Shown here: in pieces, positions 6,727-62,979 of the stretch | Layout: every line of letters starts with the position of its first letter | Numbering within the stretch: the stretch's first letter is position 1 | NCBI GenBank assembly: GCA_003215335.1 | Contig: QCKM01000001.1 | Coordinates: 186,001-250,000, forward strand | Direction of reading: 5' to 3' | Length of the DNA stretch: 64,000 bases | Origin: Prochlorococcus sp. AG-409-P01 | GTDB lineage: Bacteria; Cyanobacteriota; Cyanobacteriia; PCC-6307; Cyanobiaceae | Notes under the pieces: model-generated | What the model was told of the DNA's origin: nothing | The model's input: only the letters and a program-made list of their open reading frames with translations | Databases searched by the model: none | Position numbers and translations under genes: made by a program

Positions 6727-6751
6727 CTTTTCCTTTTAAGTGAAAAGTTTT
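6727..6751 (+). terminator. Possible weak intrinsic terminator after the first ppa
   Basis: CTTTTC at 6727-6732 can pair with GAAAAG at 6742-6747 and is followed by four T. The stem is short and AT-rich, so the call is weak. It lies just after the ppa stop codon and between convergent genes. Confidence 0.35.
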
Positions 6752-6781
6752 GATGGGGGTATTTTACCGATCAATTAATTA

Positions 6782-7735: not shown

Positions 7736-8078
7736 TAAAAAGTCATAGCAGCTATCAGATTAAGCAGTCGCGCACACTTGGAATGTCAAGGCTGACAATC
7801 CGTTATCCCAAAAATGCTCAGGAGTGGGTGGTTGAAGCTTGATTTTTTGGCTAAATCAATTGCCATGAGTGGCTTTTGGAGATGCCTGCCCAGGCTTTCC
7901 TTTTGTTACGAGCTATTTGCAAGTATTTCTAAACAAAAGTATTCAAAGGTTGAGGGTGATGGGATTTTGATTTTCCAGACTTGGAATTGATTTGTTTTTT
8001 TAGGAATACTTTTATCTTCATTGGACAATGAATTCATGAGGACTCAGTTGTCCAATGAAGATAAAAATTGAAAAATCT
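7736..8078. other. Intergenic region between hemC and rpoD
   Basis: 343 bases. The right end holds a perfect 19-bp inverted repeat (8010-8066). A 41-codon plus-strand frame beginning at the ATG at 7865 has no ribosome-binding site and looks accidental. The left part should hold the hemC promoter, but I see no clear -10/-35 pair. Confidence 0.5.
8010..8066. terminator. 19-bp perfect inverted repeat downstream of rpoD
   Basis: The left arm is 8010-8028 (TTTTATCTTCATTGGACAA), the loop is 8029-8047, and the right arm is 8048-8066, the exact reverse complement. It begins 12 bases after the rpoD stop codon on the rpoD strand. It is AT-rich, begins with TTTT and ends with AAAA, and is not followed by a separate T-run. 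It is therefore either a transcript-end or RNA-stabilising hairpin, or a symmetric bidirectional terminator. Confidence 0.6.
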
Positions 8079-9380: not shown

Positions 9381-9487
9381 GGCAGGCAAAGCGAAGGGCA
9401 AATGGAATTAACTGACTAAGTGTTAATTATGTTTTTGGAAATAATGTTGATCCAATGTTTGCACCAACCTGCAAAGCGACTCATCGT
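9381..9487. promoter_or_regulatory. Upstream region of rpoD
   Basis: About 107 bases between the rpoD start and the inverted repeat at 9488. AT-rich in part (TTAATTATGTTTTTGGAAATAA), so it probably carries the rpoD promoter on the minus strand. No exact promoter boxes can be assigned by eye. Confidence 0.35.
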
Positions 9488-9552
9488 GAATTGGATAATT
9501 GAAGTATCAACGAACCCTAATGATGATTGTTGATACTTCGACTATCCAATTC
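9488..9552. repeat. 24-bp near-perfect inverted repeat upstream of the 6S-like RNA
   Basis: The left arm 9488-9511 and right arm 9529-9552 match at 22 of 24 positions when one is reverse-complemented; the loop is 17 bases. The outer ten bases are GAATTGGATA/TATCCAATTC and the inner 12 are GAAGTATCAAC-like. It lies between rpoD and the putative 6S RNA, so it may be an rpoD 5' leader structure, an operator, or part of the ncRNA promoter region. Confidence 0.6.
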
Positions 9553-9559
9553 GACTCGT

Positions 9560-9750
9560 GCTGTGATGGTTTGGAGCAAAAAAAGAAGAAATGGCTTCTT
9601 TGGTTCATTGCAGAGCTGTCAGGGGCTTTCTCAGACCGGTCGACCGTTTATTGGTATACCAATTTGGTTCAAGCTTCGTGTCTTCCCCACGGACGGAACT
9701 CTGCTTTGTTCCGCCAACAGCCTTTGGGCTGTCCAGCATTTTTATTTTAA
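9560..9750 (+). ncRNA. ssaA: Probable 6S RNA (SsaA)
   Basis: No protein frame explains this stretch, but it folds into one long rod. GGCT 9593-9596 pairs with AGCC 9719-9722, GCAGAG 9610-9615 with CTCTGC 9699-9704, GGGG 9622-9625 with CCCC 9685-9688, and CTT 9626-9628 lies opposite AAG 9671-9673. GACC 9634-9637 pairs with GGTT 9666-9669, GGT 9638-9640 with ACC 9658-9660, and ACC 9643-9645 with GGT 9653-9655. An irregular rod of about 190 bases with a wide central bulge is the shape of 6S RNA, which binds the sigma-70 holoenzyme by mimicking an open promoter. The 3' end carries a terminator-like hairpin plus T-run. Identity as 6S is inferred from shape, size and position; the 5' end is approximate. 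Confidence 0.62.
9717..9748 (+). terminator. Intrinsic terminator of the 6S-like RNA
   Basis: ACAGCC at 9717-9722, loop TTTG, GGCTGT at 9727-9732, then after five bases a T-rich run to 9748. Part of the left arm also pairs with the 5' half of the rod, so terminator and mature fold exclude each other. It lies 12 bases before the priA start. Confidence 0.6.
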
Positions 9751-9759
9751 GAAAAAGTT

Positions 9760-12054
9760 TTGACGTCGGCAAGTCCTGGTTTCGTAAAGCTCGCGTCTAA
9801 GCCTCTTTTAGAAGTTGAGGTCTTACTAGAGGTTGGAAGAGATGGGCGGTCTTTTACCTATCTCGATAGCCATGGATGGGGGGTGTGTTTCGGAGACTTG
9901 GTGACAGTTCGTCTTCAAGACAGATTGATGAACGGCCTTGTTGTTGAGACAAGGGATTCTTCAAGATTTTATGAAGGGCAAGATTTAAAACAATTGCCTG
10001 CTAAATTACGTTTAAAAGCTATTGAGAATATTGTCCAACCATCGGCAGTAGATGCGCTTTGGTTTGATTGGGTTAAGGCAATATCGTTGAAGTGCCATGT
10101 CAGCACGTATCGCATGTTGAAAGCTGCCATGCCAGCAGGTTGGCTTGGTCGCCTTGGCTCTTCACAGAGACCACTAAAAAATAATTGGTGGATTGAGGTA
10201 GATAAATCTGATGATCATTCCAAATCCCTTCCTAAACGGCAAAGGGATTTGCATGTTTGGCTTTTGTCTGTTGGAGGAGGGGCTTGGCAGAAGGATCTTT
10301 TAGCGAAAGGGTTTAGCTTTTCTGTTCTTAAAGGCTTGCTCAAGATGGGCTTGGTCAGTCGTGAACAACGACGATCCCTTGAGATACATAAGACTTCTTT
10401 GACTAGAAATTTTCAAGAAGCCCTTGAGGACCCACAATCTTTGAATAAAGAGCAGGCAAGGGCCATTGAAGCATTTGAATCTTTGCCTAAAGGAAATGCT
10501 CTTTTGCTTTGGGGTGTTACTGGTTCAGGGAAAACAGAGGTTTATCTTCAGTTGGCAGCAAGAGAGCTTGCTAAAGGCAATCATTCTTTGATATTGGCTC
10601 CAGAGATTGGTTTGATCCCTCAGCTTGTCGACCGTTTTCGTAAACGATTTGGGCACAAAGTTTTCGAATACCACAGCGGATGTTCCCATTCGGAAAGATC
10701 TAGGACTTGGAAAACGTGTCTTGAGTCCAATAGCCCATTGGTAATTGTTGGAACTCGCTCAGCAGTGTTTTTGCCATTGAAGCCTTTAGGTTTAATTGTT
10801 CTTGACGAGGAACATGACAGCTCATATAAACAGGAGTCGCCAATGCCTTGTTATCACGCGCGGGACTTGGCTTTGGATCGGGCTAAACGCAATTCTTCAA
10901 AGGTACTGCTTGGGAGCGCCACCCCTTCCTTGTGGACTTGGAAGTACCTGACACCTGATGGGCCAATAGAACTTGCACGACTTACTCAACGTATCTCCGA
11001 GCAACCTTTGCCTCCAGTCTATGTAGTTGATATGCGTCAAGAATTAGCTGATGGTCACCGCCGCCTTGTGAGTCGTCCTTTGATGCAGCGCCTGGAGCGA
11101 TTGCCTCAGGCGAATGCTCAAGCTGTGGTGTTAGTTCCACGCCGAGGATATAGCAGTTTCCTTAGTTGCCGTAGTTGTGGCGAAGTTGTGCAATGTCCCC
11201 ATTGTGATGTGTCAATGACTGTTCATCAGGGGCGAGGAGGTGGGCATTGGCTTCGTTGCCATTGGTGTGATTATCGCTCTGAAGTGTTGTCAAGTTGTCA
11301 TAAATGTGGCTCTAAGGCTTTTAAGCCTTTCGGTGCTGGCACTCAGCGAGTCATGGAGTATTTAGAAAATGAGCTTGAGGGCTTGAGGGTGTTGCGTTTT
11401 GACAGGGATACCACTACAGGAAGGAATGGGCATAGGGAACTCTTGGCTAAATTTGCTTCGGGGGATGCAGATGTACTTGTAGGAACCCAAATGCTTGCCA
11501 AGGGAATGGACTTGCCGCGAGTCACCCTCGCAGCAGTGCTTGCTGCAGATGGTTTGTTGCATCGTCCTGACTTGCAGGCAAGTGAGGAGGCTTTGCAGAT
11601 TTTTATGCAGCTTGCTGGACGTGCAGGACGAGGAGAACGTCCTGGGGAGGTTCTGATTCAGACTTACTGTCCGGATCATCCAGTTATCTCTCATTTCGTT
11701 GATGGGAGATATGAGAAGTTCTTGGAAAAGGAGGCTTGCCTTCGTCGAGAGGCTCAGTTGGTTCCATATAGCAGGGCTTGTCTACTAAGACTTTCTGGAG
11801 ATTCCTCCGCAATGACTGCTACCGCTGCTTCAGCAATTGCAGAGCTGATAAGACCTTTGTGTGAGGCTCAAGGATGGTGCTTGGTAGGACCTGCGCCATC
11901 GATTGTGTCCAGAGTCGCTGGACGTAGTCGATGGCAGCTTTTGCTCCATGGTCCAGAGGACAGTTCTCTCCCTCTTCCAGCAGACTCATTGCTATGGAAG
12001 AATCTGCCTAAAGGAGTGTCTTTGGCGGTGGATCCAGATCCGATACATCTTTGA
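9760..12054 (+). CDS. priA: Primosomal protein N' (replication restart helicase PriA)
   Basis: 764 residues. Reloads the replicative helicase at stalled forks. Walker A is GVTGSGKTEVYL, Walker B/DEAH-like is VLDEEHDSSYK, and motif VI is QLAGRAGRGERPG. The zinc-binding insert has eight cysteines in pairs (CRSC, CPHC, CHWC, CHKC). The TTG at 9760 is the start used here; no ATG or GTG lies near enough upstream, and the first conserved strand (LLEVEVLLEVGRDGRSFTY) begins 15 codons later. The gene starts 12 bases after the ncRNA terminator. Confidence 0.94.
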   Translation: MTSASPGFVKLASKPLLEVEVLLEVGRDGRSFTYLDSHGWGVCFGDLVTVRLQDRLMNGLVVETRDSSRFYEGQDLKQLPAKLRLKAIENIVQPSAVDALWFDWVKAISLKCHVSTYRMLKAAMPAGWLGRLGSSQRPLKNNWWIEVDKSDDHSKSLPKRQRDLHVWLLSVGGGAWQKDLLAKGFSFSVLKGLLKMGLVSREQRRSLEIHKTSLTRNFQEALEDPQSLNKEQARAIEAFESLPKGNALLLWGVTGSGKTEVYLQLAARELAKGNHSLILAPEIGLIPQLVDRFRKRFGHKVFEYHSGCSHSERSRTWKTCLESNSPLVIVGTRSAVFLPLKPLGLIVLDEEHDSSYKQESPMPCYHARDLALDRAKRNSSKVLLGSATPSLWTWKYLTPDGPIELARLTQRISEQPLPPVYVVDMRQELADGHRRLVSRPLMQRLERLPQANAQAVVLVPRRGYSSFLSCRSCGEVVQCPHCDVSMTVHQGRGGGHWLRCHWCDYRSEVLSSCHKCGSKAFKPFGAGTQRVMEYLENELEGLRVLRFDRDTTTGRNGHRELLAKFASGDADVLVGTQMLAKGMDLPRVTLAAVLAADGLLHRPDLQASEEALQIFMQLAGRAGRGERPGEVLIQTYCPDHPVISHFVDGRYEKFLEKEACLRREAQLVPYSRACLLRLSGDSSAMTATAASAIAELIRPLCEAQGWCLVGPAPSIVSRVAGRSRWQLLLHGPEDSSLPLPADSLLWKNLPKGVSLAVDPDPIHL

Positions 12055-12077
12055 ACTTTTTTTGAGTTTTGGTTGGC

Positions 12078-13175
12078 TTAAGGCGGTAGTTCAGGGAAGC
12101 CGAATCCAAGCCTGACGCGGATCGTTTGCAATAGGAGAGTGATCATTAGCAATATGCATATACAAATTGCCCCTATTCCCAGAACACTCCAACGCCAATC
12201 GTGTAGTTCTAGAGTGTTTATTTTCCCGGGCTCTAATACCCAAAGAACTTCAGAGTCATTTTTGATAACAAAGTTTGGGTCCCCAATGAATTTTTGTAGG
12301 CGACTTCTAGGTGTAATTATTACAGACATTTTCAGGCCAGGTAATTCAGGTAACCTCATAAGGTCTACGAATAGCTTTAGGTCTTGCCTGACTCCGATGA
12401 CCCAGTTTTGTTCATCTAAAGTTAAACTGGGCTCATTTATAGAGAGTCCTCCTGCATCAGCACCACTTGAAAATATGCTCTTTAATAATAAATTTGCCTC
12501 TTCTGAATTTAATGTTGGTGATGTAATCTTTTGAGTACCTTCAGAGGTGTTTTTTATATTTACTAACTGCCCATTTTTACCTAAAGAATCTGCTAAATCT
12601 ATTTGCCATGGAAGAAGTTGGTTCGCTGAGCTTTCGACATCCCAGGCAAGTTGCAATCGGTCTGGTCCGCTTAGATTTATTCGCGTAGTAATACTCACGC
12701 AACCACTAAGAAGCATGGTCAGTCCAATTAGGACAACTATTACCAAGGAGATGAAACCTATTTGAAGGGCTTCGGTAGGTCCAGTAGGAGGCAGCTGCTT
12801 TGCTTTTGAGCTCTTAATTGATTGCCTCTTTTTGGACTGTATTGACTTACTTGATATGACACTTGCTTTTAGAATTGGCAATTGAACGGACCAGTTTTTC
12901 GGCCTTTCCAAGCTTGGCGCTTCAAGTACAGAGAGCATTTGTTTGGCAAGTTGGCGTAGCTCGGCGTCTTTGCAGTGGGTAATAAGCCTGCAGGTTTTCA
13001 TGGCTTTCTCTTCCTGCCCTTGTCCCATCCAGGCAGTAACCATAAGCATTCTTACCTCTGCTCCTTCTTTGCTAGGTAAGTGGTATTTCTTGGCTAATGC
13101 TTCAAGTAATTCCAAGCTTTTTCCATATTCCCCACTGCCTAAGGCTGCTTCAGCCGTTGTTAGATCAGGGGGCAT
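12078..13175 (-). CDS. Membrane-anchored protein with N-terminal TPR-like helices and a DUF3153 domain
   Basis: 365 residues. Residues 1-95 form helical hairpins like tetratricopeptide repeats. Residues 110-140 are a Lys/Ser-rich linker. Residues 143-162 form a membrane segment ending in LLSGCVS, which resembles a lipobox set inside the protein. The following beta-rich part matches the cyanobacterial DUF3153 type, and a second membrane segment (ICICILLMITLLLQTI) closes the chain. The middle domain is probably periplasmic or lumenal. Function unknown. It starts three bases from the argB stop on the same strand, so it is likely co-transcribed with argB. Confidence 0.72.
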   Translation of the reverse strand: MPPDLTTAEAALGSGEYGKSLELLEALAKKYHLPSKEGAEVRMLMVTAWMGQGQEEKAMKTCRLITHCKDAELRQLAKQMLSVLEAPSLERPKNWSVQLPILKASVISSKSIQSKKRQSIKSSKAKQLPPTGPTEALQIGFISLVIVVLIGLTMLLSGCVSITTRINLSGPDRLQLAWDVESSANQLLPWQIDLADSLGKNGQLVNIKNTSEGTQKITSPTLNSEEANLLLKSIFSSGADAGGLSINEPSLTLDEQNWVIGVRQDLKLFVDLMRLPELPGLKMSVIITPRSRLQKFIGDPNFVIKNDSEVLWVLEPGKINTLELHDWRWSVLGIGAICICILLMITLLLQTIRVRLGFGFPELPP

Positions 13176-13178
13176 TGC

Positions 13179-14051
13179 TCATCCCCGACCTGCAACCATT
13201 GTTCCTATCCCAGCATCTGTGAAAACTTCTAATAGAAGTGCATGAGGTACACGGCCATCGATGATATGTGCTGCTGATACACCTTGAGATAGGGCTCTAA
13301 TGCAACATTCGGTTTTTGGAGTCATCCCTCCGCTTACGACTCCATTGGAGATGAGTTTCCGCGCTTGGGACAATTTTAATTGCTTAATAAGAGAAGAAGG
13401 GTCATTTTCTTTTTGAAGAATTCCTGGTGTATCAGTTAAGAGTATTAGCTTCTCTGCACCAAGAGCAGCAGCGAGTTCTCCTGCAACAGTATCTGCATTG
13501 ATGTTATGTGATTGTCCCTCAAGCGTTGCAGCAACGCTTGAGATCACGGGGACATAACCTTTGGTTAAGAGTGGCTCTAGTACATCAGAGTCAACCTTTG
13601 CTACATCCCCGACAAGCCCATGACTACCATCTCCCCAAGGGCGTGCTTCTATTAACCCTCCGTCGCTTCCACTAAGACCTACGGCTGGAGCTCCAAGTCG
13701 ATTGAGGCCATTCACGATTTGCTTGTTAACTCTCCCAACCAAAACCATTTCAACTACGTCCATTGTTTTTGAATCGGTAACGCGTAATCCGTCTTTGAAT
13801 GCAGCTGGGATGTCTAATCTTTTGAGCCAATGATTTATTTCGGGCCCCCCTCCATGAACAACAACTGGTTGCACACCTACACTAGAAAGGAGTGCTAGGT
13901 CACGAAAAACTGCTTCTTTAAGAGCCACCTCAACCATTGCGGCTCCACCGTATTTGATGACAATGCGTCTACCTGCAAATCGTTGGATATAAGGCAATGC
14001 TTCGCTTAGGACAGATACCCGCAGCGCATCATCCTCGGAGTGTTTGTTCAA
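13179..14051 (-). CDS. argB: Acetylglutamate kinase
   Basis: 290 residues. Phosphorylates N-acetylglutamate in arginine synthesis; in cyanobacteria it is controlled by PII. Nucleotide- and substrate-binding landmarks are present: VIKYGGAAM near residue 32, [11 protein letters not shown] near 62, and [12 protein letters not shown] near 180. The TTG at 14051 is the most upstream start; a shorter start is possible because the first 15 residues are not conserved. Co-directional with the DUF3153 gene downstream and the DUF2854 gene upstream. Confidence 0.93.
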
Positions 14052-14090
14052 TTCTTTTCCTCCTTGGGGATATCCAATCTGTTCACAGAT

Positions 14091-14663
14091 TTAGTTGTCA
14101 TCATTTTGATGCCTGGATTGCTCGTCGTTTTGGCTTGGGAGAAGCGTCAGATCTAGTGCTTCGGACGATGCAGGCTTGAGCTCTGCTTGTAGACCTTTGG
14201 CAAAAAAACGACCAAGCCGCTCTTTACGCTCTTGCCACCTTTCTATTGATACTCCAGCAGTTTCGAATCTCAGACGTAATCCATACCCTTTGGGTGTAGT
14301 GAGTTCTTCGATTTCGACTAATTGAGGTGGATTGTCATCGTCCCAAAGATTAAGGACTTGAAGTGAACTGTCTAGATGAGCTTTTTGGCCATATCGCCAA
14401 CGTGTTACATCCCCAAGCAGCTTTATTAGTTCTGGAGGGGCTTGTTTTTTTGATTCGCTGTCATTTTTTATTTTATTGAGGTGCTTGGCAGGTGGTAGTT
14501 CTGAAGTTTTTAATGCAAGCCCTCCAATAAATATTGGAAAACCGTAAAAGAGTGTTGGAACACTGAGGTTGGCGGCTCCAGTGGCATAGGCAATGGCTCC
14601 TACAACGGTCAAGGCTGCGCCACTAACTGTGATGAGGTTGCCTGGAGAGAAAAGATCCTTCAT
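14091..14663 (-). CDS. DUF2854 membrane protein (cyanobacteria/plastid family)
   Basis: 190 residues with two N-terminal membrane segments (about 8-28 and 33-50, containing TLFYGFPIFIGGLALK), then a soluble domain. This matches the DUF2854 family shared by cyanobacteria and plant chloroplasts, of unknown function. The C-terminal 25 residues are polar and Asp/Asn-rich. It lies 39 bases upstream of argB on the same strand. Confidence 0.78.
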   Translation of the reverse strand: MKDLFSPGNLITVSGAALTVVGAIAYATGAANLSVPTLFYGFPIFIGGLALKTSELPPAKHLNKIKNDSESKKQAPPELIKLLGDVTRWRYGQKAHLDSSLQVLNLWDDDNPPQLVEIEELTTPKGYGLRLRFETAGVSIERWQERKERLGRFFAKGLQAELKPASSEALDLTLLPSQNDEQSRHQNDDN

Positions 14664-14716
14664 GAGGGATATTGTGGCGTTAGGGGTTTCAAGATGGGGT
14701 CGAAAGTTTTCTTGCT

Positions 14717-14917
14717 ATGGCATTAGACAAACGGCATGACAATCATCTTTCAGAGTTAATTGCTCAACTAGATGAAGATAGGGCTTGGCTGTTGGAACAA
14801 ATTGACAAGGGCCGGTGGTCTGAGTTCCGCCTTGATTTGGCAGCACTGGAGAGAGAATTGGGTCAATTGTTGACTCGAGCCGCAGAGAAGTTTGAGGAAG
14901 ATGGTGGTATCAAATGA
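14717..14917 (+). CDS. Small conserved hypothetical protein, helical
   Basis: 66 residues, charged and almost entirely helix-forming (LSELIAQLDEDRAWLLEQID, then LDLAALERELGQLL). No membrane segment. It reads like a real protein, with an even codon pattern and an ATG start, and sits between divergently and convergently placed genes. No function can be assigned; it could be a small coiled-coil adaptor. Confidence 0.65.
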   Translation: MALDKRHDNHLSELIAQLDEDRAWLLEQIDKGRWSEFRLDLAALERELGQLLTRAAEKFEEDGGIK

Positions 14918-14927
14918 TCAGATTTAA

Positions 14928-15404
14928 TCAAAATGGGATCTCGTCTGTATCAGGAATTAAAGGAGCAGTATTCCAGCTAACGGTCTCTGCCCCATTTTGA
15001 TTGGATTGTTGAGTTGTTTGTTTTTGAACTGGAGCTGGAGGAGCCTGGTTTGTATGTTTGCTGGAAGGAACATCATTGATTGCTTGGTGCGAAGTTCCTT
15101 TCATAGGAAAATCATGCAATCTCGAAAGTGTGAACTCGGCACGTTTCTCTTTCGTCCCATCTTGGCGAGGAACAGTGTTCATCCGCAAACGCCCCTCTAC
15201 CACTACTCTCTGACCTATTCCTATGCGGCTTTGAAGTTCTTGAGCAAGATTGCCCCACCCCACCACTTTCAGCGTCCCAGGGGGGTCTTCTGCTCGCAGA
15301 CCAGCAAAACGCACTTCTACTTCTGCAATTGGCGTTTGTTTGTCTTGGGTGTAACGAACCGTTGGGGTTCCTGTTACTTCCACTTCAAGCAAGCAGTGAT
15401 TCAT
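14928..15404 (-). CDS. ssb: Single-stranded DNA-binding protein
   Basis: 158 residues from the ATG at 15404 (an upstream start eight codons earlier is not conserved). The N-terminal 105 residues form the OB-fold (CLLEVEVTGTPTVRYT, VVGWGNLAQELQ, GQRVVVEGRL). A Gln/Pro/Thr-rich linker follows, and the acidic tail ends DTDEIPF, the partner-binding tip of bacterial SSBs. Divergent from cobK; the two starts are only about 27 bases apart. Confidence 0.92.
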   Translation of the reverse strand: MNHCLLEVEVTGTPTVRYTQDKQTPIAEVEVRFAGLRAEDPPGTLKVVGWGNLAQELQSRIGIGQRVVVEGRLRMNTVPRQDGTKEKRAEFTLSRLHDFPMKGTSHQAINDVPSSKHTNQAPPAPVQKQTTQQSNQNGAETVSWNTAPLIPDTDEIPF

Positions 15405-15430
15405 TTTCTTCCGTTGGAGTGTGCGCAATC

Positions 15431-16240
15431 TTGACCCAGAGTAGGAGGAATTGCCAGAGAAGCATTTGGCTGTTGTCAGGTACTGGGGAAGGCCCTCGTT
15501 TGGCGGCTCAACTGTCTAGGGCTGGTTGGAAAGTATTTGTAAGTGTGGTCTCTTTTCAGGCAGCATTGCCTTATTCGGATTTGCAATTAGAAGATGTTTG
15601 GGTAGGAGCCTTGGGTGGGGTTGAGGAAATATGTGGCTTAATAAAGCAATCTCGACAAAAATATGGTGGATTTGATTGGGTTGTTGATGCAACTCATCCT
15701 TTTGCAGTTGTAATAAGTGCCCACTTGCAGAAGGCTTGTGAGGATCTTGATCAAAGGCTTCTAAGGCTTGATCGCCCTATTGGCAGTTCTCCAGAGGCCA
15801 GCTTGATTAAGGATTCTGCAGAACTTGCTGGTCAGAAATTACAAGGGAGCAGACTTTTATTAGCCCTTGGCTCTAGACATTTGAATCAGGCTGTTATGTC
15901 TGCTCGTCACGCAGGGGCATTGGTCTTTGCTCGCATACTGCCTTCACCTATGAGTATTCGTAGTGCTCTAGCTAGTCAGATTGAGCCTGGTCATATTGCG
16001 ATGCTTCGTCCTTTGCAAGGTGACCAGCCTGGAGTATTGGAGTCGGCTCTTTGTAGACGGTGGTCTATTACTGCGGTGGTATGTAGGCAGTCGGGCGGGG
16101 ACTCTCAAAATCTATGGCAAGTCATTTGTAAAGAGAATGCACTGAGGCTTTGGTTGATTTCAAGGCCTAAGCAGCAGACTAGTGCTGTTGTCGTCTACTC
16201 AATAGATGAATTATTTAATGAAATATCTATTCAATTATAG
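15431..16240 (+). CDS. cobK: Precorrin-6A reductase (CobK/CbiJ)
   Basis: NADPH-dependent reductase of the cobalamin corrin ring. Family signatures are IWLLSGTGEGPRLAAQL near the N-terminus, WVVDATHPFAVVISAHLQKAC, and RLDRP. The open frame extends upstream into ssb on the other strand; the most plausible starts are the TTG at 15431 or the GTG at 15419, giving about 270 residues, near the family length of about 250. A good AGGAGG lies inside the first codons, so the start could be slightly further downstream. Confidence 0.85.
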   Translation: MTQSRRNCQRSIWLLSGTGEGPRLAAQLSRAGWKVFVSVVSFQAALPYSDLQLEDVWVGALGGVEEICGLIKQSRQKYGGFDWVVDATHPFAVVISAHLQKACEDLDQRLLRLDRPIGSSPEASLIKDSAELAGQKLQGSRLLLALGSRHLNQAVMSARHAGALVFARILPSPMSIRSALASQIEPGHIAMLRPLQGDQPGVLESALCRRWSITAVVCRQSGGDSQNLWQVICKENALRLWLISRPKQQTSAVVVYSIDELFNEISIQL

Positions 16241-50070: not shown

Positions 50071-51840
50071 TTGCAAAGGTATAGACCATTCAAGCTAGTT
50101 CTTTTCCTTTTGACATTTCATCTACCTCTCATTGCGCAAGTCAACTGGAAAGCTCCGGAGACGATTGATACCAAAAAATCCGCAGTCTCGGCGGCAAGCG
50201 GGCGAGCTGTCGTTGTAACTGCTAATCCATTGGCAAGTGATGCAGCTCTGAGGACCTTGGCTGAAGGTGGGACTGCTATGGATGCGGTGGTTACAGCGCA
50301 GACAGTGCTTGCTGTTGTTGAACCACAAAGTTCAGGCTTAGGAGGTGGTGCTTTTCTTTTGTATTGGGACCAGTCGAAACAATCTTTACACGCGTTTGAT
50401 GGTCGAGAAACTGCACCAGCTCAAGCAGATAGGGATATGTGGATGACATCTAATGGCGAAGCAGTTCCTTGGCTGCATGCAACCAGAAGTCTCTCGTCAA
50501 TAGGCGTTCCAGGTACAACAGCTTTACTTTGGGAAGGACACCAACAATTTGGACGTCTGTCTTGGGGAGAAAATTTTAAGAAGAGTATTCACCTTGCCAC
50601 AGAGGGATTCTTTCCAAGCCCTCGCTTCCTTAGGTCAATCTCTTTAGCAAAGAAAATAGGAATTAAACATAGTAGGACTTTTAAATCCACCTATCTCCCA
50701 AATGGTTCTCTTCCAACGCAAAAGATACCGTTTCGAAACCAGAAATTAGCATCAACCTTAAGTCGTCTGGCTCAGGGAGGTGTCGATGAGTTTTATCGTG
50801 GTCAAGTAGCCAATGATCTTATCGCCGATATCCAATTACAGCAGAACAGCAATGAGCGGGTGCAAACAATTACGAAAGAAGATTTGGCAAGTTATAAAAT
50901 CCAAAAACGCAACCCTATTTGTCGTAAATACAGGTCTTGGCGAATTTGTTCTTTCCCTCCTCCAAGTGGAGGAGGCATTGCGGTATTACAAGCTCTTGGA
51001 ACATATGAGATTCTTTTAAAGAAATTTGGGTCAGAATCAACGGTAAATCGTTGGCATCTTTTAGCAGAATCTTTAAGGTTGGCAGATGCCGATCGTTCTC
51101 ACTGGATTGGAGATCCCATTGACTGGCCAGTTCCGCTTAAGGGATTATTGGAAGATGACTATATAGAGAAAAGAACAAACGCTATCACGATTGACAATTC
51201 AATATTTCGTCCTTTGCCAGGGAATCCAAAAGGTAGTGAAATGTTGGATTTTGCCAGTCAGCCACGTACCGCTGGTGGAGGAACGACTCACCTAGTAGTA
51301 GTTGATGTTTATGGGAACGTCGCAAGTTATACGAGTTCAGTTGAAACTGTCTTCGGGAGCAGGAATCTTTCTGGTGGCATGGTCTTAAATAACCAACTAA
51401 CTGACTTCTCATTTTTATCAAATGTCTCAGGAAAACCTATTGCAAATCGAGTTAAGCCAAATAAACGGCCTTTGAGCTCTATGGCTCCAGTCATAGTTTT
51501 TCGTGATCATCGCCCAGTTTTGGCACTTGGATCACCAGGTGGCTGGCTTATTCCTCATTACATAACAAATGCATTAATTGGGATACTGGATTTAAACCTT
51601 TCACCTAAGGAAGTAGTTAGTCAGAAGTTGTTGTCGGTTCAACCTGATTACACGCTGCTTGAAAAAAGTGGTAATTGGTCCAGTTCCCATCTCAATATTT
51701 ATAGTGGGCTCAAAAGTCTTGGCCATCAAATTAAATATAGCTCTTTTGGCAGTGGATTGGCTGTAATTAAATGGGATAAGGGACGATGGTACGGTGCCGC
51801 TGACCCAAGAAGAGAGGGCAAAGCAGTTGGCTTTCAGTAA
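50071..51840 (+). CDS. ggt: Gamma-glutamyltranspeptidase
   Basis: 589 residues. Cleaves gamma-glutamyl bonds such as in glutathione, in the periplasm. A signal peptide spans about residues 1-23 (FKLVLFLLTFHLPLIAQ). The N-terminal pattern SGLGGGAFLLYWD and the self-cleavage site TAGGGTTHLVVVD, where the first Thr becomes the nucleophile of the small subunit, are intact. The TTG at 50071 is the best start. It opens the accessory block. Confidence 0.9.
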   Translation: MQRYRPFKLVLFLLTFHLPLIAQVNWKAPETIDTKKSAVSAASGRAVVVTANPLASDAALRTLAEGGTAMDAVVTAQTVLAVVEPQSSGLGGGAFLLYWDQSKQSLHAFDGRETAPAQADRDMWMTSNGEAVPWLHATRSLSSIGVPGTTALLWEGHQQFGRLSWGENFKKSIHLATEGFFPSPRFLRSISLAKKIGIKHSRTFKSTYLPNGSLPTQKIPFRNQKLASTLSRLAQGGVDEFYRGQVANDLIADIQLQQNSNERVQTITKEDLASYKIQKRNPICRKYRSWRICSFPPPSGGGIAVLQALGTYEILLKKFGSESTVNRWHLLAESLRLADADRSHWIGDPIDWPVPLKGLLEDDYIEKRTNAITIDNSIFRPLPGNPKGSEMLDFASQPRTAGGGTTHLVVVDVYGNVASYTSSVETVFGSRNLSGGMVLNNQLTDFSFLSNVSGKPIANRVKPNKRPLSSMAPVIVFRDHRPVLALGSPGGWLIPHYITNALIGILDLNLSPKEVVSQKLLSVQPDYTLLEKSGNWSSSHLNIYSGLKSLGHQIKYSSFGSGLAVIKWDKGRWYGAADPRREGKAVGFQ

Positions 51841-51991
51841 GTGCAGTTAGGAATGCTTCTCATTGCTGAGACTTGATGAAGTGATTGCAAAAGTGGATCA
51901 GATAATTAAAAGCGAAGAAACAACCAAGCTCTTTCAATCTGGAAACTTGATTCAATCACTTTTGATCCTTCGAACAACCAACATAAAAGCT

Positions 51992-52174
51992 TTAGGAAGG
52001 ATCGTTGTTTTTCTTTTCCCCGCCGAGCCAACCTTCTTCTTTTATTCCTCGCCGGAGAGCAGTGATCAATGCTCCGAAGAAAAATGCTCCGATGCCAGCA
52101 AATAAACCAAGCGTTAGCAATGGCTTCCAACCAAAAGCTGCCATATTCTGAAGCGCAGGATCAGATGGGTCCAT
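51992..52174 (-). CDS. Small single-TM protein
   Basis: 60 residues: MDPSDPALQNMAAFGWKP, then one membrane helix (LLTLGLFAGIGAFFFGALITALR, about 19-41), then a charged tail. The pattern is that of small thylakoid or inner-membrane proteins of picocyanobacteria; the family is not recognised. Convergent with ggt. Confidence 0.55.
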   Translation of the reverse strand: MDPSDPALQNMAAFGWKPLLTLGLFAGIGAFFFGALITALRRGIKEEGWLGGEKKNNDPS

Positions 52175-52392
52175 TCTTCTATTGATAAAGGGCCGAATTC
52201 ATTAATATTCACCTGCTAATCACTCAAACCTAGGGAAGTAGAAGTTTCTTCTTAAAGTTCATGTTTGATTAATTGCTGAAAAATGGACCTTGTATCTAGG
52301 GTTGTTTCTATTTAGTCTCTAATCAATAAGAGGCCGATAATTACACCAGCTTCATGTCTATTCAAACTCATCCTAAATCATAGAAGGAAGTG

Positions 52393-54108
52393 ATGGTCGA
52401 CCCTATGTCAACCCCTTGCAGCGCATTTGAATCATCGCTAATAAAAACTTTCGATGAGTTTTCACAACGAGTCGACTACTCGCTGATGGATTCACTCCAT
52501 GCGGACCCACAGGCGAGAGGCGATGGTCAAGATCGCCATCCTCGTCAAGTGTTCTCTGGTCATTACGTACCGGTCATTCCCACGCCCATTCCATTACCGG
52601 AATACATAGCGCATAGCAAAACCTTATTTGACGAATTGGGTCTTAGCAATGAACTTGTCCTTGACAAACAATTTCGCAGTCTGTTTTCAGGAGACACCAC
52701 CGTAGCAAGGGAGCCAATGCGTCCGGTGGGCTGGGCTACTGGTTATGCTTTGTCTATCTATGGCACTGAATACATACAGCAGTGCCCGTTTGGAACCGGT
52801 AATGGCTACGGCGATGGTCGTGCAATTTCTGTGTTCGAAGGCCTCTTGAAGGGTAGGCGCTGGGAGATGCAGTTGAAGGGCGGAGGTGCGACTCCGTATT
52901 GCCGTGGTGCTGATGGACGTGCAGTGCTTCGTTCCAGCGTACGTGAGTTTCTGGCACAGGAATACATGCAGGCCCTTGGAGTTCCGACCTCACGCTCTTT
53001 GACTCTGTATGTATCCCGATCCGAAATGGTTCGTAGGCCGTGGTATGACGAGAATTCCACGTCTATTGATCCAGACATCCTGGTAGACAATCCTGTGGCT
53101 ATCACAACACGTGTTGCGCCATCCTTTCTTCGTGTCGGTCAGCTTGAGCTGTTTGCTCGTCGAGCACGCAGCAATGCTTATCAGGGTGCGCTGAACGAGC
53201 TACAGATGCTTGTGAAGCATCTTGTTGAACGTAATTACCTGGAGGTAATTGATCCGAGTCTTACCTTCACTGATCAAGTGGTTGAGCTGGCCGAGTTATT
53301 TCGTGGGCGGCTCACATCATTAGTAGCCAACTGGATGCGCGTTGGTTACTGCCAGGGCAATTTCAATAGTGACAATTGTGCAGCTGGTGGCTTTACCCTT
53401 GACTATGGCCCTTTCGGATTCTGCGAACTGTTTGACCCCAGATTTCAGCCCTGGACAGGAGGAGGCGACCATTTCTCATTCTTCAACCAACCAGTTGCTG
53501 CCGAAGCTAATTATCAGATGTTCTGGTCAGCTCTCAGACCTCTGCTCACAGATGACACGGAGGCACTGGCAAGGCTAGATCAAATTAGAGAGGGCTTTTC
53601 TGAAGCTATGAGCCAGGAGATCGAGGCAATGTGGGCAAAGAAGCTCGGTTTGAATAGCTATGACGCAACTCTGGTGAACGAATTGCTCCATCTCATGATT
53701 CTTTCCAAAGTGGACTACACGATCTTTTTCCGTAAGCTTTCTCATATTCCAGACCAACTCACAACTTTGAAAGAGAGCTTCTACCTGCCCAGCTCAGAGC
53801 AGGTAGAAGCTCAGTGGGCTGACTGGCTGCAACGGTGGCGGGCTCGCATAACGAGTTGTGGTGACCTAAGAGTGATATCTACAGCCATGAAACGCATTAA
53901 TCCCAAATACAGCTGGCGCGAGTGGTTGATTACACCCGCTTATAAGAAGGCTGAGCAAGGTGATTACCACCTAGTCAAGGAGTTGCAGGATGTGTTCAGT
54001 AATCCCTACGATGAACAATCATTTGAGGTGGAGAAGAAGTATGACCGATTAAAACCTAAGAAATTCTTCAATGCAGGGGGTATATCCCACTACAGTTGTT
54101 CGTCTTAA
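52393..54108 (+). CDS. selO: SelO/YdiU-family pseudokinase, protein AMPylase
   Basis: 571 residues from the ATG at 52393, preceded by GAAGGA. SelO transfers AMP from ATP to Ser/Thr/Tyr of proteins involved in redox balance. Typical motifs are [20 protein letters not shown] (normally KGAGPTPYSR), [29 protein letters not shown] and [10 protein letters not shown] (metal and catalytic Asp). The chain ends ISHYSCSS, the Cys-Ser-Ser tail that is selenocysteine-bearing in human SELO. GC content looks clearly higher than the neighbours, a sign of transfer. Confidence 0.92.
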
Positions 54109-55868: not shown

Positions 55869-56207
55869 TTGAATAAAAAATATGAATCAGAATGGGGAGG
55901 TAAGTTGTTTTTATTTAATGACCCAAATAGACAGACATTAGCAAACATGACTTGTATAGAGCCTCTTTTCAATAGACTGGTCATATTTAACACTTATGAT
56001 ACGACTTTTCATGGCCACCCCTTGGCATTGGACTTTCCTGATGAATATCCTAGGACTTCATTGGCTTTTTATTATTATACTTCAAAGGACAGACCTTCAA
56101 GTGAAAGAAGAAGACTTAATCTACATCTACAAGATATATTCCAACAAGAAATGAAAAGTTTGCAACTACTAGTGTTTGATTTAAAACTAGAGTTGGACAT
56201 GTCTTAA
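55869..56207 (+). pseudogene. C-terminal remnant of a 2-oxoglutarate/Fe(II) oxygenase (P4H-like)
   Basis: 112 residues matching only the second half of the family: LNKKYESEWGGKLFLF, FNRLVIFNTYDTTFHGHP (the second iron-binding His) and RTSLAFYYYTSKDRP (the Arg that binds 2-oxoglutarate). The first iron-binding HxD is absent. About 40 bases upstream the frame still reads with similarity (KVESFRLSLELYLNK) and is then closed by a stop, so the 5' half has been lost. Confidence 0.62.
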
Positions 56208-56432: not shown

Positions 56433-59400
56433 GTGCGTCGGCATTCGAAAGTAATCACAACTAGTGAATGCGCAAGAGAAATTATATATCAATCAAATAA
56501 CAAAGTGATATTGCTCTCATTAAGTAAGCAATTGCTTAGAAGTTTTTTCTTTCTTGCTCTACTTTCGCCAAGCAAAGTCCTGGCTAGTCCATGCGATTCT
56601 GAAGTTACAAGTCTTTCAAATGCAGTAGTAGGAAGCTCTGGAGATTGCAATGGGAAATTAATTGTCAATAGACAAATACTTGTTGATGTCATAGCAGCTG
56701 GTGCAAATAGAGCTACTGACTATACGATTACAAAAGATGGTGTTAGTTATACCTTTGGTGACTCATCAAAAAATATTTACACAGGAAATATAACTAACTT
56801 TTCAGGATTATTTCAAGGAAAAAAATGGTTTAATGCTGATATTAGTTATTGGAATACTAGAAGTGCTACGGATATGAACTCTATGTTTCGAGCAGCCCAT
56901 AGATTCAATCAAGATATAGGTGATTGGAATGTTGAAAATGTCACTAACATGAAAAGAATGTTTGAACGAGCTGTCAGATTTAACCAAGATATAAACGACT
57001 GGAATATAAGCAATGTTACTGATACGTCAAGAATGTTTATGAGGGCCAACAAGTTTAATCAAAATCTAAATGGTTGGGATGTTGGAAGTGTCACCAATAT
57101 GAATGCCATGTTTAAAGGAGCCAAAGCATTTAATGGAAATATATCTAACTGGTCTACATCAAATGTCCGTAGTTTTCACCAAACTTTTAGAGGAGCTAAA
57201 GCTTTTAATCAAGATATTACTAATTGGAATACAGGTTCAGCAACAGGATTTAAAAGAACTTTCCAAAATGCTACGGCATTTGACCAAGACTTAACAGGCT
57301 GGAATGTACAGAAAAGGAAGCAGCCACCTCGGCTATTTGCACCAGGCTTAGCTTTAGATAAGCATCCCTGTTGGGGAAGTGATGGATGCTCTTCAGGCCC
57401 TCTTCTGACATCCTCAACACCTTCAGACGGACAATATGGCGTTCTTGAAACAGCGACATTGACCTTGAGTTTTGATAGAGATGTTAAAGCCAATAGAGGT
57501 TACATTGCTTTGAGGGAAGCAAATAGCTGGTCAGATATTAAAAGATACAAAATAAACTCTAATAAAGTTACCTTTAGTGATGATAAAAGATCAATTATTG
57601 TTGATATCAGCAATGACCTGCAGGCTAATAAGGACTACTGGATATATATCAAAAATAATGTTATCACTTCCACTTCTAACAACAGTTATAAAGGCCTTAC
57701 TGACCAGACCATGTTGAATTTCTCCACTCGAGCTTCAGATACTACTTCGCCAGAAGTAGAAGCTTATTCGCCAGCAAATGGATCTGTGAAACTAGAGATT
57801 GCCAACCCAAAGTTAGTGTTGCTATTTACAGAAGAAATAGCATTTGGTACAGGAGAAATTAAATTGAAGAAATATGCAGACGATAGCCTAATTCAGGCCT
57901 TTGATGTTTCCAGTAATACAGATATTTCTGTCTCATATGACGAGCTTACAATCAATCTAGTAAATAGTGATGGGGAGAGTATAGTTGAATCAGAAACAAA
58001 GTATTACCTGCAAATAGATTCTGGAGCTATTGTTGATACGGCCAGCTCTCCTAATTCATTTGCTGGGATTAGCTCTAAAAATACATATTCTTTTACTACA
58101 GTAGCCGAATCAACTTGTGGAAGTATATCTGGAATTACGAGAGTAAATCGTGGAGGCTTAGGCATTTCAAGTACAGAAGTAAAAATATATTTAGGAAATA
58201 CCTATCTGACAACGGTGGAAACAGATGGAACTGGAAGATATCAATATTTTCCTACAGAAACTGGCACTTATAAAGTCGAGTTTGTTAGGCCTAATAGTGA
58301 TTCTCGAATTGCAAAGGGCGTCATGACAAAGAGTAGTGGTGCTTATCAGACAGGTCGCTGGATACGGAATATTGTCATCACTACTAGCTGTGAAGACCAT
58401 CAAGAAGTGGATGGATTACTAATTGACCCAGCTGGTGTTATTTATAATTCAAATACTCGTCAACCTGTATCAGGAGCAACTGTTAAGCTGTTATATAATG
58501 GTGAACTTGTGAGCAACGACTGGCTTGATAGCAGTGGTGGTGAAAATACACAAGTAACCGGAGCAAATGGTTCTTATAGCTTTATTTTTAAAGCTGACTC
58601 AGCTTCTGATGGAACTTATACAATTGAGGTTGAGCCGCCAGCTGCTTATACATTTGAAAGCACTGAAATTGCCTCAGAAGGGACAACATATACCTCCCAA
58701 TTGGGAGGAGGTGTAGAAGAAATTCAAGATCAAGATGATGCTCCAGCCTCAGGGGAACTTACCACCTATTACTTGTCCTTCTCTTTTACATTTACTAGTG
58801 AGTCATCCACTACTTCAAATGGCGTAATTAACAATCATATTCCTATTGACCCTCATTCTGACCCAACTTTAAAAGCAGATGTTGTAGGCCTTGCAGAATC
58901 TTGGAGCAATGCAGCAATTCGTTTTAGCAAGTCAAGCATTAATGCAGTCAATAGACGCTTTGACTGGCTTAGAAGGAATACGACTTCTAACAAGAAGTCG
59001 TATCAGGGAATTAAGGTTTCATTTGCAAATCCATTCTTTGAAAGAGCTATTAATGGGAATTCAGGTGGTTTGAACAGTCTCCGCGTTGATGACCTGACAA
59101 GCTGGGCAAAGACAAATTGGTCAAATGAAAGGCTCATTGATCAATCTGATGAGGTTATCTATGAATTAAAAGAGCGCTCTATAGATATTGCGATGGCAGA
59201 AGTTCGTAATAATGCTGGAGAAATAAATCTCAATCCAAAAGCGGGTAATTTAATAGATGACTGGGCATTCTGGACTGATGGGAATCTCATTATTGGAAAT
59301 TCTGCAGGAACATCAGTTGCGTCTAGTCAGGATACAGAAACCACAGCGTTCACTTTAGGTATAGATAAACCATACGAAGAGAATGGTTTGTTTGGAATTG

Positions 59401-60077
59401 CTTTTACTTTTGGTCATGATGCTGTTGATGTGGGGGGTGTAGGAAGTCGACTTGAGTCAGACAACTACAGCCTTTCAATTTATTCATCTAAACGGTTTAA
59501 ACACTTCCTTCCAATAGAAGCTCAGCTTGGTGTGGGAAAGATGCAAATGCATACAAAAAGGATAGATAACTCAATTACACATAAAGGCGATCGAGATGTA
59601 AATATGGTTTTCGGTTCTGCTGCCTTATTTGGGGAACCTATCTCTGAAGGAGACTTTCAAATCACGCCTTTTGGAAGATTAGAGTTGGCTCATATTCAAT
59701 TCGAAGAATTTTCTGAATCTGGAAGCAACCTTGCATTGAGATTCAAAGAGCAAACACTCGATAGAAAGATGATTTCGTTGGGTTTTGATCTTGGTTATGA
59801 GATTCCTCTTGAAAGGTGGAGGTTAAGGCCTTTCGGAAAAGTTGAATATGCTCATGAGTTCGCTGATGACTCAAATATTGATATGAACTATATTGGCGAT
59901 TCTCAAAACTATCGATTAATTTTTAAGAAAGTAGCCAGCGATTATTTGAACACAGCACTTGGAGTTGAATTTTATAAAGACAATCGATTCTCGGCCAATT
60001 TGACTTATGCACACGAGCATACAGGCACTTCTTTTTATACGAATTCATATCAATTCCAAATCGATTGGCATTTCTAG
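56433..60077 (+). CDS. Autotransporter-like surface protein with BspA/PARCEL repeats
   Basis: 1214 residues, GTG start. Residues about 23-52 form an export signal. Residues 130-295 hold seven 25-residue repeats (Trp at 140, 165, 190, 215, 240, 265, 290; core FNxDIxxWN..xVTxMxxMF), the DUF285/BspA-like unit found in Mycoplasma and other surface proteins. Two Ig-like Big_5 segments (about 315-560) and two SdrD/carboxypeptidase-regulatory beta-sandwiches (about 565-760) follow. The C-terminal 280 residues look like an autotransporter beta-barrel ending in Phe (IDWHF). Likely exported by the type V route to the cell surface, with the repeats as ligand-binding part. No protease motif was seen. Confidence 0.82.
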   Translation: MRRHSKVITTSECAREIIYQSNNKVILLSLSKQLLRSFFFLALLSPSKVLASPCDSEVTSLSNAVVGSSGDCNGKLIVNRQILVDVIAAGANRATDYTITKDGVSYTFGDSSKNIYTGNITNFSGLFQGKKWFNADISYWNTRSATDMNSMFRAAHRFNQDIGDWNVENVTNMKRMFERAVRFNQDINDWNISNVTDTSRMFMRANKFNQNLNGWDVGSVTNMNAMFKGAKAFNGNISNWSTSNVRSFHQTFRGAKAFNQDITNWNTGSATGFKRTFQNATAFDQDLTGWNVQKRKQPPRLFAPGLALDKHPCWGSDGCSSGPLLTSSTPSDGQYGVLETATLTLSFDRDVKANRGYIALREANSWSDIKRYKINSNKVTFSDDKRSIIVDISNDLQANKDYWIYIKNNVITSTSNNSYKGLTDQTMLNFSTRASDTTSPEVEAYSPANGSVKLEIANPKLVLLFTEEIAFGTGEIKLKKYADDSLIQAFDVSSNTDISVSYDELTINLVNSDGESIVESETKYYLQIDSGAIVDTASSPNSFAGISSKNTYSFTTVAESTCGSISGITRVNRGGLGISSTEVKIYLGNTYLTTVETDGTGRYQYFPTETGTYKVEFVRPNSDSRIAKGVMTKSSGAYQTGRWIRNIVITTSCEDHQEVDGLLIDPAGVIYNSNTRQPVSGATVKLLYNGELVSNDWLDSSGGENTQVTGANGSYSFIFKADSASDGTYTIEVEPPAAYTFESTEIASEGTTYTSQLGGGVEEIQDQDDAPASGELTTYYLSFSFTFTSESSTTSNGVINNHIPIDPHSDPTLKADVVGLAESWSNAAIRFSKSSINAVNRRFDWLRRNTTSNKKSYQGIKVSFANPFFERAINGNSGGLNSLRVDDLTSWAKTNWSNERLIDQSDEVIYELKERSIDIAMAEVRNNAGEINLNPKAGNLIDDWAFWTDGNLIIGNSAGTSVASSQDTETTAFTLGIDKPYEENGLFGIAFTFGHDAVDVGGVGSRLESDNYSLSIYSSKRFKHFLPIEAQLGVGKMQMHTKRIDNSITHKGDRDVNMVFGSAALFGEPISEGDFQITPFGRLELAHIQFEEFSESGSNLALRFKEQTLDRKMISLGFDLGYEIPLERWRLRPFGKVEYAHEFADDSNIDMNYIGDSQNYRLIFKKVASDYLNTALGVEFYKDNRFSANLTYAHEHTGTSFYTNSYQFQIDWHF

Positions 60078-61679: not shown

Positions 61680-61686
61680 AAGTTTG

Positions 61687-62979
61687 ATGGATGACTCTTT
61701 ATTGCGCCCTCTGCCAACTACAGGTGCTGTAACTGGAATAGTTGAGGCCATGGCATTTTTTCGTGACCCTAGCTTCGCCAAAAGGCGCTTTGAACGTCTT
61801 GGGAATGTTTTCGAGACATCAATGCTTGGACAGCCAATGGTGTTCATCCAGGGGAGCAAGGCGATCACTGATCTTCTCTCTAAACCAGAAGCTATTGAAG
61901 GTTGGTGGCCAGAGAGTGTGCAACAACTTTTGGGTAGCTATTCACTGGCAAACCGCAATGGAGAAGCACATAAAGCACGGAGGAGAGTAGTAGCTCAACT
62001 GTTCTCTTCTTCAGCGTTGCAACGCTACAGCCCTGGCATCATCAATTTGGTTGAAGAACTTCGCGAAGAACTTAAAACCTCAAGAAAACCTCTTCCCTTA
62101 GTTCAAAAAATGCGTCGCTTCGCTTTTTCCGTTATCGCTACAACGGTTCTTGGCTTAGAGGGTGATGATCGTGACAAGTTATTTTCTGATTTCGAGATTT
62201 GGACAAAGGCTCTGTTCTCAATTCCGATAGCTCTCCCAGGCAGTCCATTTGCCAAAGCGTTTAAGGCAAGAACACGTTTACTTAAAAAACTTCAACAAGT
62301 ACTTGCCAAGCCAATTAAAGGTAAAGGTGGTTTGGATTTACTGGCCGGGGGCCTCGACGAGGTGGGGATTCCACTTGGGGATGCAGATCTGGGAGAACAA
62401 CTACTTTTACTTTTATTTGCTGGTTACGAAACTACAGCGTCTGCTCTGAGTTGCTTAATGCGGGAATTACTGATCAATCCACAAGTTGAAAAATGGCTTC
62501 GTGAAGAGATCGATGAGTTGCGATGGCCTCCATTACTTGAGCAAGCAACTAACGGCTTCGACGTTGGCAATGCTCCAAGACTCGATGCCATGGTTAATGA
62601 GGTAATGAGACTAACTCCACCAGTAGGTGGCTTTTTTCGGCGTACCAAAAAGCCCTTAGAAATAGAAGGCATTTATGTACCGGAGGGTCGTGTAGTACAA
62701 GTTGCACTAGCTAGTTCTAATCGTTATGGCATTGGTGACTTGGAGATTTTTCGCCCACAACGTCACCTAGAGGATAAATGTTCTTTAAACCTGATGCCTT
62801 TCGGTGGAGGCGAACGTGTATGCCTTGGAAAGTCGTTGGCTGAACTTGAGATACGATTAATGGTGGTTGGATTATTTCGTGAATTGCAACTTGAGGCTAT
62901 TCCCGATCAAGACTTCAACTTGCGACAACTTCCCAGCCCCTCTCCACGTGATGGCTTATTGGTAAAGGTAAAATCCTAA
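61687..62979 (+). CDS. Cytochrome P450
   Basis: 430 residues from the ATG at 61687, preceded by GGAGGG. Heme-thiolate monooxygenase: the I-helix is LLLLFAGYETTASALS, the ExxR motif is EVMRL, the heme-binding loop is FGGGERVCLGKSLAELEIRL with the Cys ligand. No membrane anchor, so soluble. Similar cyanobacterial P450s act on fatty acids, terpenoids or retinoids; the substrate here is unknown. No dedicated ferredoxin or reductase is nearby. Confidence 0.93.
   Translation: MDDSLLRPLPTTGAVTGIVEAMAFFRDPSFAKRRFERLGNVFETSMLGQPMVFIQGSKAITDLLSKPEAIEGWWPESVQQLLGSYSLANRNGEAHKARRRVVAQLFSSSALQRYSPGIINLVEELREELKTSRKPLPLVQKMRRFAFSVIATTVLGLEGDDRDKLFSDFEIWTKALFSIPIALPGSPFAKAFKARTRLLKKLQQVLAKPIKGKGGLDLLAGGLDEVGIPLGDADLGEQLLLLLFAGYETTASALSCLMRELLINPQVEKWLREEIDELRWPPLLEQATNGFDVGNAPRLDAMVNEVMRLTPPVGGFFRRTKKPLEIEGIYVPEGRVVQVALASSNRYGIGDLEIFRPQRHLEDKCSLNLMPFGGGERVCLGKSLAELEIRLMVVGLFRELQLEAIPDQDFNLRQLPSPSPRDGLLVKVKS

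What the first reader, a model, noticed from the sequence alone, without database searches (positions are those of the whole stretch)
56433..60077. Surface protein joining Mycoplasma-type 25-residue repeats to an autotransporter-like barrel
Seen: seven repeats at an exact 25-residue spacing (Trp every 25 from 140 to 290), then Ig-like and SdrD-like beta-sandwiches, then a barrel-like C-terminus ending in Phe. The repeats resemble DUF285/PARCEL units, which are known to move between distant microbes. Finding them as the passenger of a Gram-negative type V-like protein in a free-living picocyanobacterium suggests a role in cell contact, phage or grazer avoidance.
Basis: partly seen in the sequence, partly recalled or inferred. 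Interest (0 to 1): 0.7.

Follow-up and report, generated by a model that had tools for sequence, protein, structure and literature searches.

The report
Mobile surface autotransporter with DUF285 repeats
This gene encodes a Prochlorococcus surface protein in which a repeat best known from Mycoplasma is carried through the outer membrane by a classical autotransporter barrel; relatives show that the whole gene jumps between strains, sometimes landing next to tRNA genes, so it looks like an exchangeable 'face' of the ocean's most abundant photosynthetic cell.

Summary
The ORF at 56433-60077 (+, 1214 aa) carries seven Trp-anchored 25-residue repeats (DUF285, E 3e-63), two Big_5 domains, SdrD_B/transthyretin-like sandwiches, a predicted helix, and an autotransporter barrel (PF03797, E 7e-41) ending in Phe. 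The barrel model matches solved barrels of EstA, AaaA, NalP, EspP and BrkA. It is not a one-off: 13 full-length orthologues (window included; others 47-79% identical to it) in six genus-level groups all have both domains and 7 or 8 repeats. Two lie in genomes whose exact sizes are those of Prochlorococcus MIT9301 and MIT9215, the strains in which a 2010 survey saw these repeats but called the proteins 'bitopic'. The gene tree conflicts strongly with a ProRS tree (93% vs 61% identity in one pair, 46% vs 94% in another). Homology between genomes mostly stops near the gene's edges, and in four genomes the gene abuts tRNA-Pro or tRNA-Thr fragments. Best reading: a type Va autotransporter displaying a DUF285 ligand-binding head, spread as single-gene cargo of tRNA-site islands. 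Ligand and phage/grazer role are untested. The window's own copy shows no mobility marks.

The parts
56433..60077 (+). DUF285-autotransporter ORF, 1214 aa, from the GTG at 56433
   Evidence: 13 full-length orthologues
56505..56588 (+). probable signal peptide (residues 25-52, KQLLRSFFFLALLSPSKVLA|S) from the alternative GTG start at 56505; not a lipobox (Pro before Cys54)
   Evidence: sequence; alignment of orthologue N-termini; no signal-peptide predictor available
56589..56807 (+). N-terminal cap of the repeat domain (residues 53-125)
   Evidence: alignment and model
56808..57332 (+). seven 25-residue DUF285/TIGR02167 repeats (residues 126-300)
   Evidence: DNA copies 62-74% alike
57396..57728 (+). 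Big_5 Ig-like domain 1 (residues 322-432)
   Evidence: Pfam PF13205
57735..58103 (+). Big_5 Ig-like domain 2 (about residues 435-557)
   Evidence: second Big_5 stretch; model strands; boundaries approximate
58104..58397 (+). SdrD_B-like beta-sandwich (residues 558-655, Pfam match 573-623) with conserved Cys562 and Cys653
   Evidence: SdrD structures among Foldseek hits of the whole model
58434..58673 (+). CarboxypepD_reg/transthyretin-like domain just before the translocator (match residues 668-747); most conserved passenger domain
   Evidence: below the curated cut-off here; 12 of 13 members match; conservation
58875..58976 (+). predicted linker helix (residues 815-848), probably threading the barrel pore
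   Evidence: model; mean identity of the segment 74%
59262..60074 (+). autotransporter beta-barrel (residues 944-1214; Pfam match 950-1192) ending in Phe1214

Best explanation
It is a type Va (classical) autotransporter. After Sec export the C-terminal barrel is folded into the outer membrane by Omp85/BamA, the 815-848 helix is left in the pore, and the passenger is drawn out: a transthyretin/SdrD-like module next to the membrane, then two Ig-like domains as a stalk, then a DUF285 solenoid as the outermost head. The head binds a fixed ligand (a glycan or protein on another cell, particle, grazer or phage), so the protein works as an adhesin or receptor-like surface module. The gene is accessory and moves as a one-gene unit between Prochlorococcus lineages, in several cases through tRNA-anchored integrase islands of the tycheposon kind. 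Shown: domain make-up, barrel fold (predicted), orthologues, gene transfer, tRNA association in four genomes. Inferred: export, orientation, ligand binding and the mechanism of movement. The window's own copy shows no element bracket.
For: Pfam and NCBIfam matches; all 13 orthologues carry DUF285, Autotransporter, Big_5 and SdrD_B. The barrel model's best PDB hits are EstA, AaaA, NalP, EspP, AIDA-I, BrkA and Hbp (TM normalised by target 0.79 for NalP and BrkA). The own genome has an Omp85. Purifying selection (dN/dS 0.16-0.27 in close pairs), lowest or near-lowest dN in the repeats. Transfer: identity contrasts, AU tests p from 1.6e-9 to 2.5e-64 on the gene tree and 0.004 to 2e-6 on the ProRS tree, homology confined mostly to the gene. 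tRNA association: partial tRNA-Pro 155 bp after the stop in G117 and about 170 bp before the start in G405; tRNA-Thr next to the gene in G387 and G212, where direct repeats holding a tRNA-Thr half bracket it, with an integrase remnant (phrog_1, E 2.8e-6). In G387 a second tRNA-Thr unit is uninterrupted where the gene-sized unit sits in the first, with CCACTTTT at both junctions. A DUF285 protein of a Synechococcus phage lies beside tail collar fibre genes, which supports a recognition role.
Against: No expression, localisation or binding data. The head and stalk model is of low overall confidence (pLDDT 57, pTM 0.33), so the domain order in space is inferred. Classical passengers are mostly beta-helical, while this one is a string of sandwiches with conserved Cys pairs, so export could differ in detail. 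The tRNA association is seen in four of 13 loci; the window's copy has no tRNA, flanking repeat or integrase beside it, only somewhat low GC3 (0.278 vs mean 0.361, z about -2), and the neighbouring metC-like gene is nearly as low.
Confidence: 0.7

Rival explanations
1. A secreted rather than anchored protein: the passenger is cut off near the conserved Asn-Asn (800-801) before the helix and released.
For: N800 and N801 are invariant in all 13 orthologues in an otherwise low-confidence stretch; some autotransporters self-cleave at an Asn-Asn (established for SPATEs).
Against: In SPATEs the Asn pair lies inside the pore helix; here it is about 14 residues before the helix. Stalk-like sandwiches fit an anchored protein better.
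Confidence: 0.12
2. A phage- or grazer-related surface factor under arms-race selection (receptor, decoy or mask). This is a narrower form of the best explanation.
For: Punctate distribution, whole-gene exchange and island location; Synechococcus phages carry DUF285 proteins, in one case in the tail-fibre region.
Against: The repeats themselves are conserved, not hypervariable; phage copies are only about 35% identical and no phage record carries the barrel; no phenotype data.
Confidence: 0.3
3. An old vertically inherited gene lost many times, with gene-tree conflict caused by paralogy.
For: Punctate presence could be loss; the two deep clades (7 and 8 repeats) could be ancient paralogues.
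Against: None of the carriers collected has both forms; 93% identity between genera whose ProRS is 61% identical cannot come from old paralogy; genomic positions differ between close strains.
Confidence: 0.07
4. Chance fusion or assembly artefact joining a Mycoplasma-type fragment to an autotransporter.
For: The combination is not described in the papers searched.
Against: Thirteen full-length orthologues with the same architecture, including in single-contig genomes.
Confidence: 0.01

Closest known systems
Type Va autotransporters (PF03797; NalP, EspP, EstA, AaaA, BrkA)
   Same: Same barrel by profile and by predicted fold, helix in front of the barrel, C-terminal Phe.
   Different: The passenger is a DUF285 repeat domain on Ig/SdrD-like sandwiches, not the usual beta-helix or enzyme; conserved Cys pairs; the host is a streamlined picocyanobacterium.
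DUF285 / PARCEL proteins (PF03382, TIGR02167; Roske et al. 2010, PMC2996958)
   Different: The survey classed those proteins as bitopic membrane proteins and does not mention autotransporters; the DNA dyad symmetry it reports was not seen here.
DUF285 proteins with RTX repeats in other picocyanobacteria (L090, L091, L095)
   Same: Same repeat, also Big-type Ig domains in L091 and L095.
   Different: They carry RTX nonapeptides, so probably type I secretion, instead of a barrel.
Tycheposons (integrase islands at tRNA genes in Prochlorococcus; summarised in PMC10872708)
   Same: tRNA halves, duplicated tRNA-Thr and integrase remnants beside the gene in some genomes.
   Different: No intact recombinase found next to the gene, and nothing of the kind beside the window's copy.

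Membership tests
Type Va autotransporter | C-terminal barrel matching PF03797 | tested here: met
   E 6.8e-41, residues 950-1192; 13 of 13 orthologues
Type Va autotransporter | 12-strand barrel fold with N-terminal pore helix | tested here: met
   Model with helix 815-848 and 12-13 long strands; best PDB hits are 12-strand autotransporter barrels; exact strand count not settled
Type Va autotransporter | C-terminal aromatic signal for the BAM complex | tested here: met
   All 13 end in Phe; Omp85 present in the genome
Type Va autotransporter | Sec signal peptide | tested here: inconclusive
   Basic, then hydrophobic N-terminus ending VLA|S by eye; no predictor available, start codon uncertain
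Type Va autotransporter | Passenger exposed at or released from the cell surface | not testable with these tools
   needs surface labelling or proteomics
DUF285 protein repeat (PF03382/TIGR02167) | Tandem 25-residue units matching the profile | tested here: met
PARCEL as a palindromic coding element | Dyad symmetry in the DNA of the repeats | tested here: not met
   One inverted pair only, far apart; single-strand fold no better than shuffles, z +0.82; a cruder test than the published one
Tycheposon cargo (orthologues) | Location at a tRNA gene with partial or duplicated tRNA | tested here: met
   G212, G387, G117, G405; not seen in the other loci
Tycheposon cargo (orthologues) | Tyrosine recombinase of the element | tested here: inconclusive
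   Only degraded remnants (phrog_1 E 2.8e-6; no Pfam match)
Tycheposon cargo (window copy) | tRNA or direct repeat beside the gene | tested here: not met
   No tRNA in the window and no flanking repeats

The most novel reading that the evidence does not exclude
Prochlorococcus exchanges complete cell-surface adhesins as single-gene cassettes: the DUF285 autotransporter is excised and inserted at recombinase sites (CCACTTTT-type junctions beside tRNA genes) by tycheposon recombinases acting in trans, giving strains a swappable recognition head that may face the DUF285 proteins found in the tail-fibre region of cyanophages.
Probability: 0.25. Interest if true: 0.8.

Novelty: new variant of a known kind. 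Interest (0 to 1): 0.55.

Why it matters
How Prochlorococcus varies its surface, and what recognises that surface, is a central open question for phage and grazer mortality in the ocean. This gives a defined, testable surface protein family, present in cultured strains, that corrects an earlier topology assignment and ties a long-puzzling repeat (DUF285, function unknown) to a secretion route with well-understood mechanics. It also offers a case of single-gene transfer between lineages whose ProRS proteins are only about 60-65% identical.

Tried and rejected
Two papers matching 'DUF285' plus 'autotransporter' were false matches (DUF2853, DUF2852). A viral-contig scan for the whole protein found nothing, and the barrel has no phage match. 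A palindromic DNA signature in the repeats was sought and not found. An empty site between the metC-like gene and the P450 gene was looked for, but the two are not close neighbours in the relatives where both could be placed on one contig, so it gave no clean comparison. Lipoprotein anchoring was rejected (no lipobox). Recent expansion of the repeats by duplication was rejected: the DNA copies are only 62-74% alike. A cyanobacterial barrel relative with another passenger was sought among other autotransporters of the family; none matched better than about 23% identity. The full-length structure model was too weak to place domains in space.

Full report
What is there. The frame 56433-60077 (+) is open over 1214 codons. 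hmmscan gives DUF285 (E 3.2e-63), Autotransporter PF03797 (6.8e-41, residues 950-1192), Big_5 in two stretches (2.3e-17) and SdrD_B (4.1e-7), with a weak CarboxypepD_reg match; NCBIfam gives the 'PARCEL repeat' model TIGR02167 (1.2e-17). The Trp series 140 to 290 at exactly 25 is far outside chance. The N-terminus has a basic, then hydrophobic stretch ending VLA|S, most simply read from the GTG at 56505; the GTG at 56433 is the other candidate. No signal-peptide predictor was available.

The barrel. AlphaFold2 on residues 795-1214 with 13 orthologues gave pLDDT 69 and pTM 0.72, a long helix (815-848) and 12-13 long strands. Foldseek against the PDB puts autotransporter barrels in all of the first 16 places (EstA, AaaA, NalP, EspP, AIDA-I, BrkA, Hbp), with TM by target 0.79 for NalP and BrkA. 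The model of the whole mature protein is weak (pLDDT 57, pTM 0.33), though its repeat region and Ig-like domains mostly score 70-90, and SdrD structures appear among its matches. The genome has one Omp85, the machine such barrels need (established knowledge).

A family, not a one-off. DUF285 occurs in 23 of 400 genomes of the window's family. From these and the first relatives search I collected 13 full-length orthologues, the window's included, of about 1200-1250 aa; the others are 47-79% identical to the window's protein and all end in Phe. All 13 match DUF285, PF03797, Big_5 and SdrD_B. Repeats number 7 in one deep clade and 8 in the other, an exact 25-residue step. Named relatives are uncultured Prochlorococcus genomes. 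Two carriers, G117 and G387, have contig lengths 1,641,879 and 1,738,790, exactly the genome sizes listed for MIT9301 and MIT9215 (PMC6102989). These are the two strains, of twelve, in which Roske et al. 2010 found these repeats; they called the proteins bitopic membrane proteins, noted that the two genes lie in completely different genomic places, and never mention autotransporters (PMC2996958). A strain match by size is an inference, but the sizes agree to the base. A 2015 survey assigned autotransporter-type barrels to Synechococcus strains only (PMC4365693).

The gene moves. Compared with prolyl-tRNA synthetase, the gene's relationships are scrambled: G144 and G151 (two genera) share 93% of the autotransporter but 61% of ProRS; G001 and G030 88% against 65%; G405 and G396 (one genus) 46% against 94%. 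The trees conflict: AU tests reject each of three genus groupings on the gene tree (p 1.6e-9 to 2.5e-64) and three gene-tree groupings on ProRS (p 0.004 to 2e-6). ProRS is one marker only. Aligned DNA between carriers mostly stops at the gene edges, and neighbours differ. One locus of the 93% pair is on an 8-kb contig of an incomplete uncultured genome, so contamination cannot be wholly ruled out there; the other contrasts do not depend on it.

How it may move. In G117 the stop codon is 155 bp from a partial tRNA-Pro(TGG); in G405 the gene begins about 170 bp after the last of 13 copies of the same sequence; an intact tRNA-Pro lies at the first place of each series. In G387 the gene abuts one of two tRNA-Thr copies. 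In G212 it is bracketed by direct repeats (78% over 386 bp) that begin inside tRNA-Thr and continue into integrase-like remnants, one matching phrog_1 'integrase' at 2.8e-6. In G387 the second tRNA-Thr unit is uninterrupted where the first is split by a 3.75-kb gene-sized unit, with CCACTTTT at both joints. This pattern is that of tycheposons as described for Prochlorococcus (summarised in PMC10872708). The window's own copy shows none of it, only low GC3.

Selection and function. Close pairs give dN/dS 0.16-0.27; the repeats have the lowest or near-lowest dN, while the segment just before the barrel and the barrel vary more. So the head seems to bind something fixed; whole-gene exchange, not repeat variation, makes strains differ (inference). 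Elsewhere in the family the same repeats are joined to RTX nonapeptides, and in other phyla in some cases to type IX secretion tails. Among 37 such proteins from other organisms the autotransporter family is not among the 25 commonest matches, so at most one could carry it. The repeat is thus a head joined to whichever secretion route the host has (inference). Phages use it too: 111 phage records match, 43 of them Synechococcus phages, and in one of these the gene stands beside tail collar fibre genes and a glycosyltransferase. That points to recognition, but phage and host copies are only about 35% identical.

Verdict. The structural claim is confirmed, the architecture appears undescribed in the papers I could search, and the transfer pattern is new detail on a known kind of protein. 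The ligand and ecological role remain open.

Noticed in passing
L080 (G405) 1902-3104, - strand: A YadA-like trimeric autotransporter (YadA_head and YadA_anchor) lies in the same tRNA-Pro repeat region, about 3.7 kb from the DUF285 autotransporter.
   Followed up: partly
L091 (G089) 2978-9343 and 9817-15615; L095 (G422) 1-12972: Very long DUF285 proteins, with RTX repeats where scanned; two stand in tandem in G089, and the G422 frame runs over 4324 codons.
   Followed up: partly
L197 5446-6573 (Synechococcus phage ACG-2014f_Syn7803C7): A DUF285-type protein of the phage sits between tail collar genes and a glycosyltransferase; 43 Synechococcus phage records match the repeats.
   Followed up: partly
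L085 (G144) and L082 (G151): A family of interspersed repeats of roughly 70-450 bp, present many times in 18 kb of L085, flanks the gene on both sides in L082 (3199-3391 and 7503-7694).
   Followed up: no
window 61684-62979 and 50071-54108: The cytochrome P450 downstream, and the SelO-like and ggt-like genes upstream, also lie near the gene in G030 or G001 but in other orders, as if the gene and these neighbours share a rearranging zone.
   Followed up: partly
window 58830-58835 (residues 800-801): An Asn-Asn pair invariant in 13 orthologues lies just before the predicted pore helix; possible cleavage site.
   Followed up: no
window 55869-56207: A 112-codon frame upstream of the gene resembles a truncated 2OG-Fe(II) oxygenase (PF13640 E 1.2e-5, just below the curated cut-off).
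   Followed up: no
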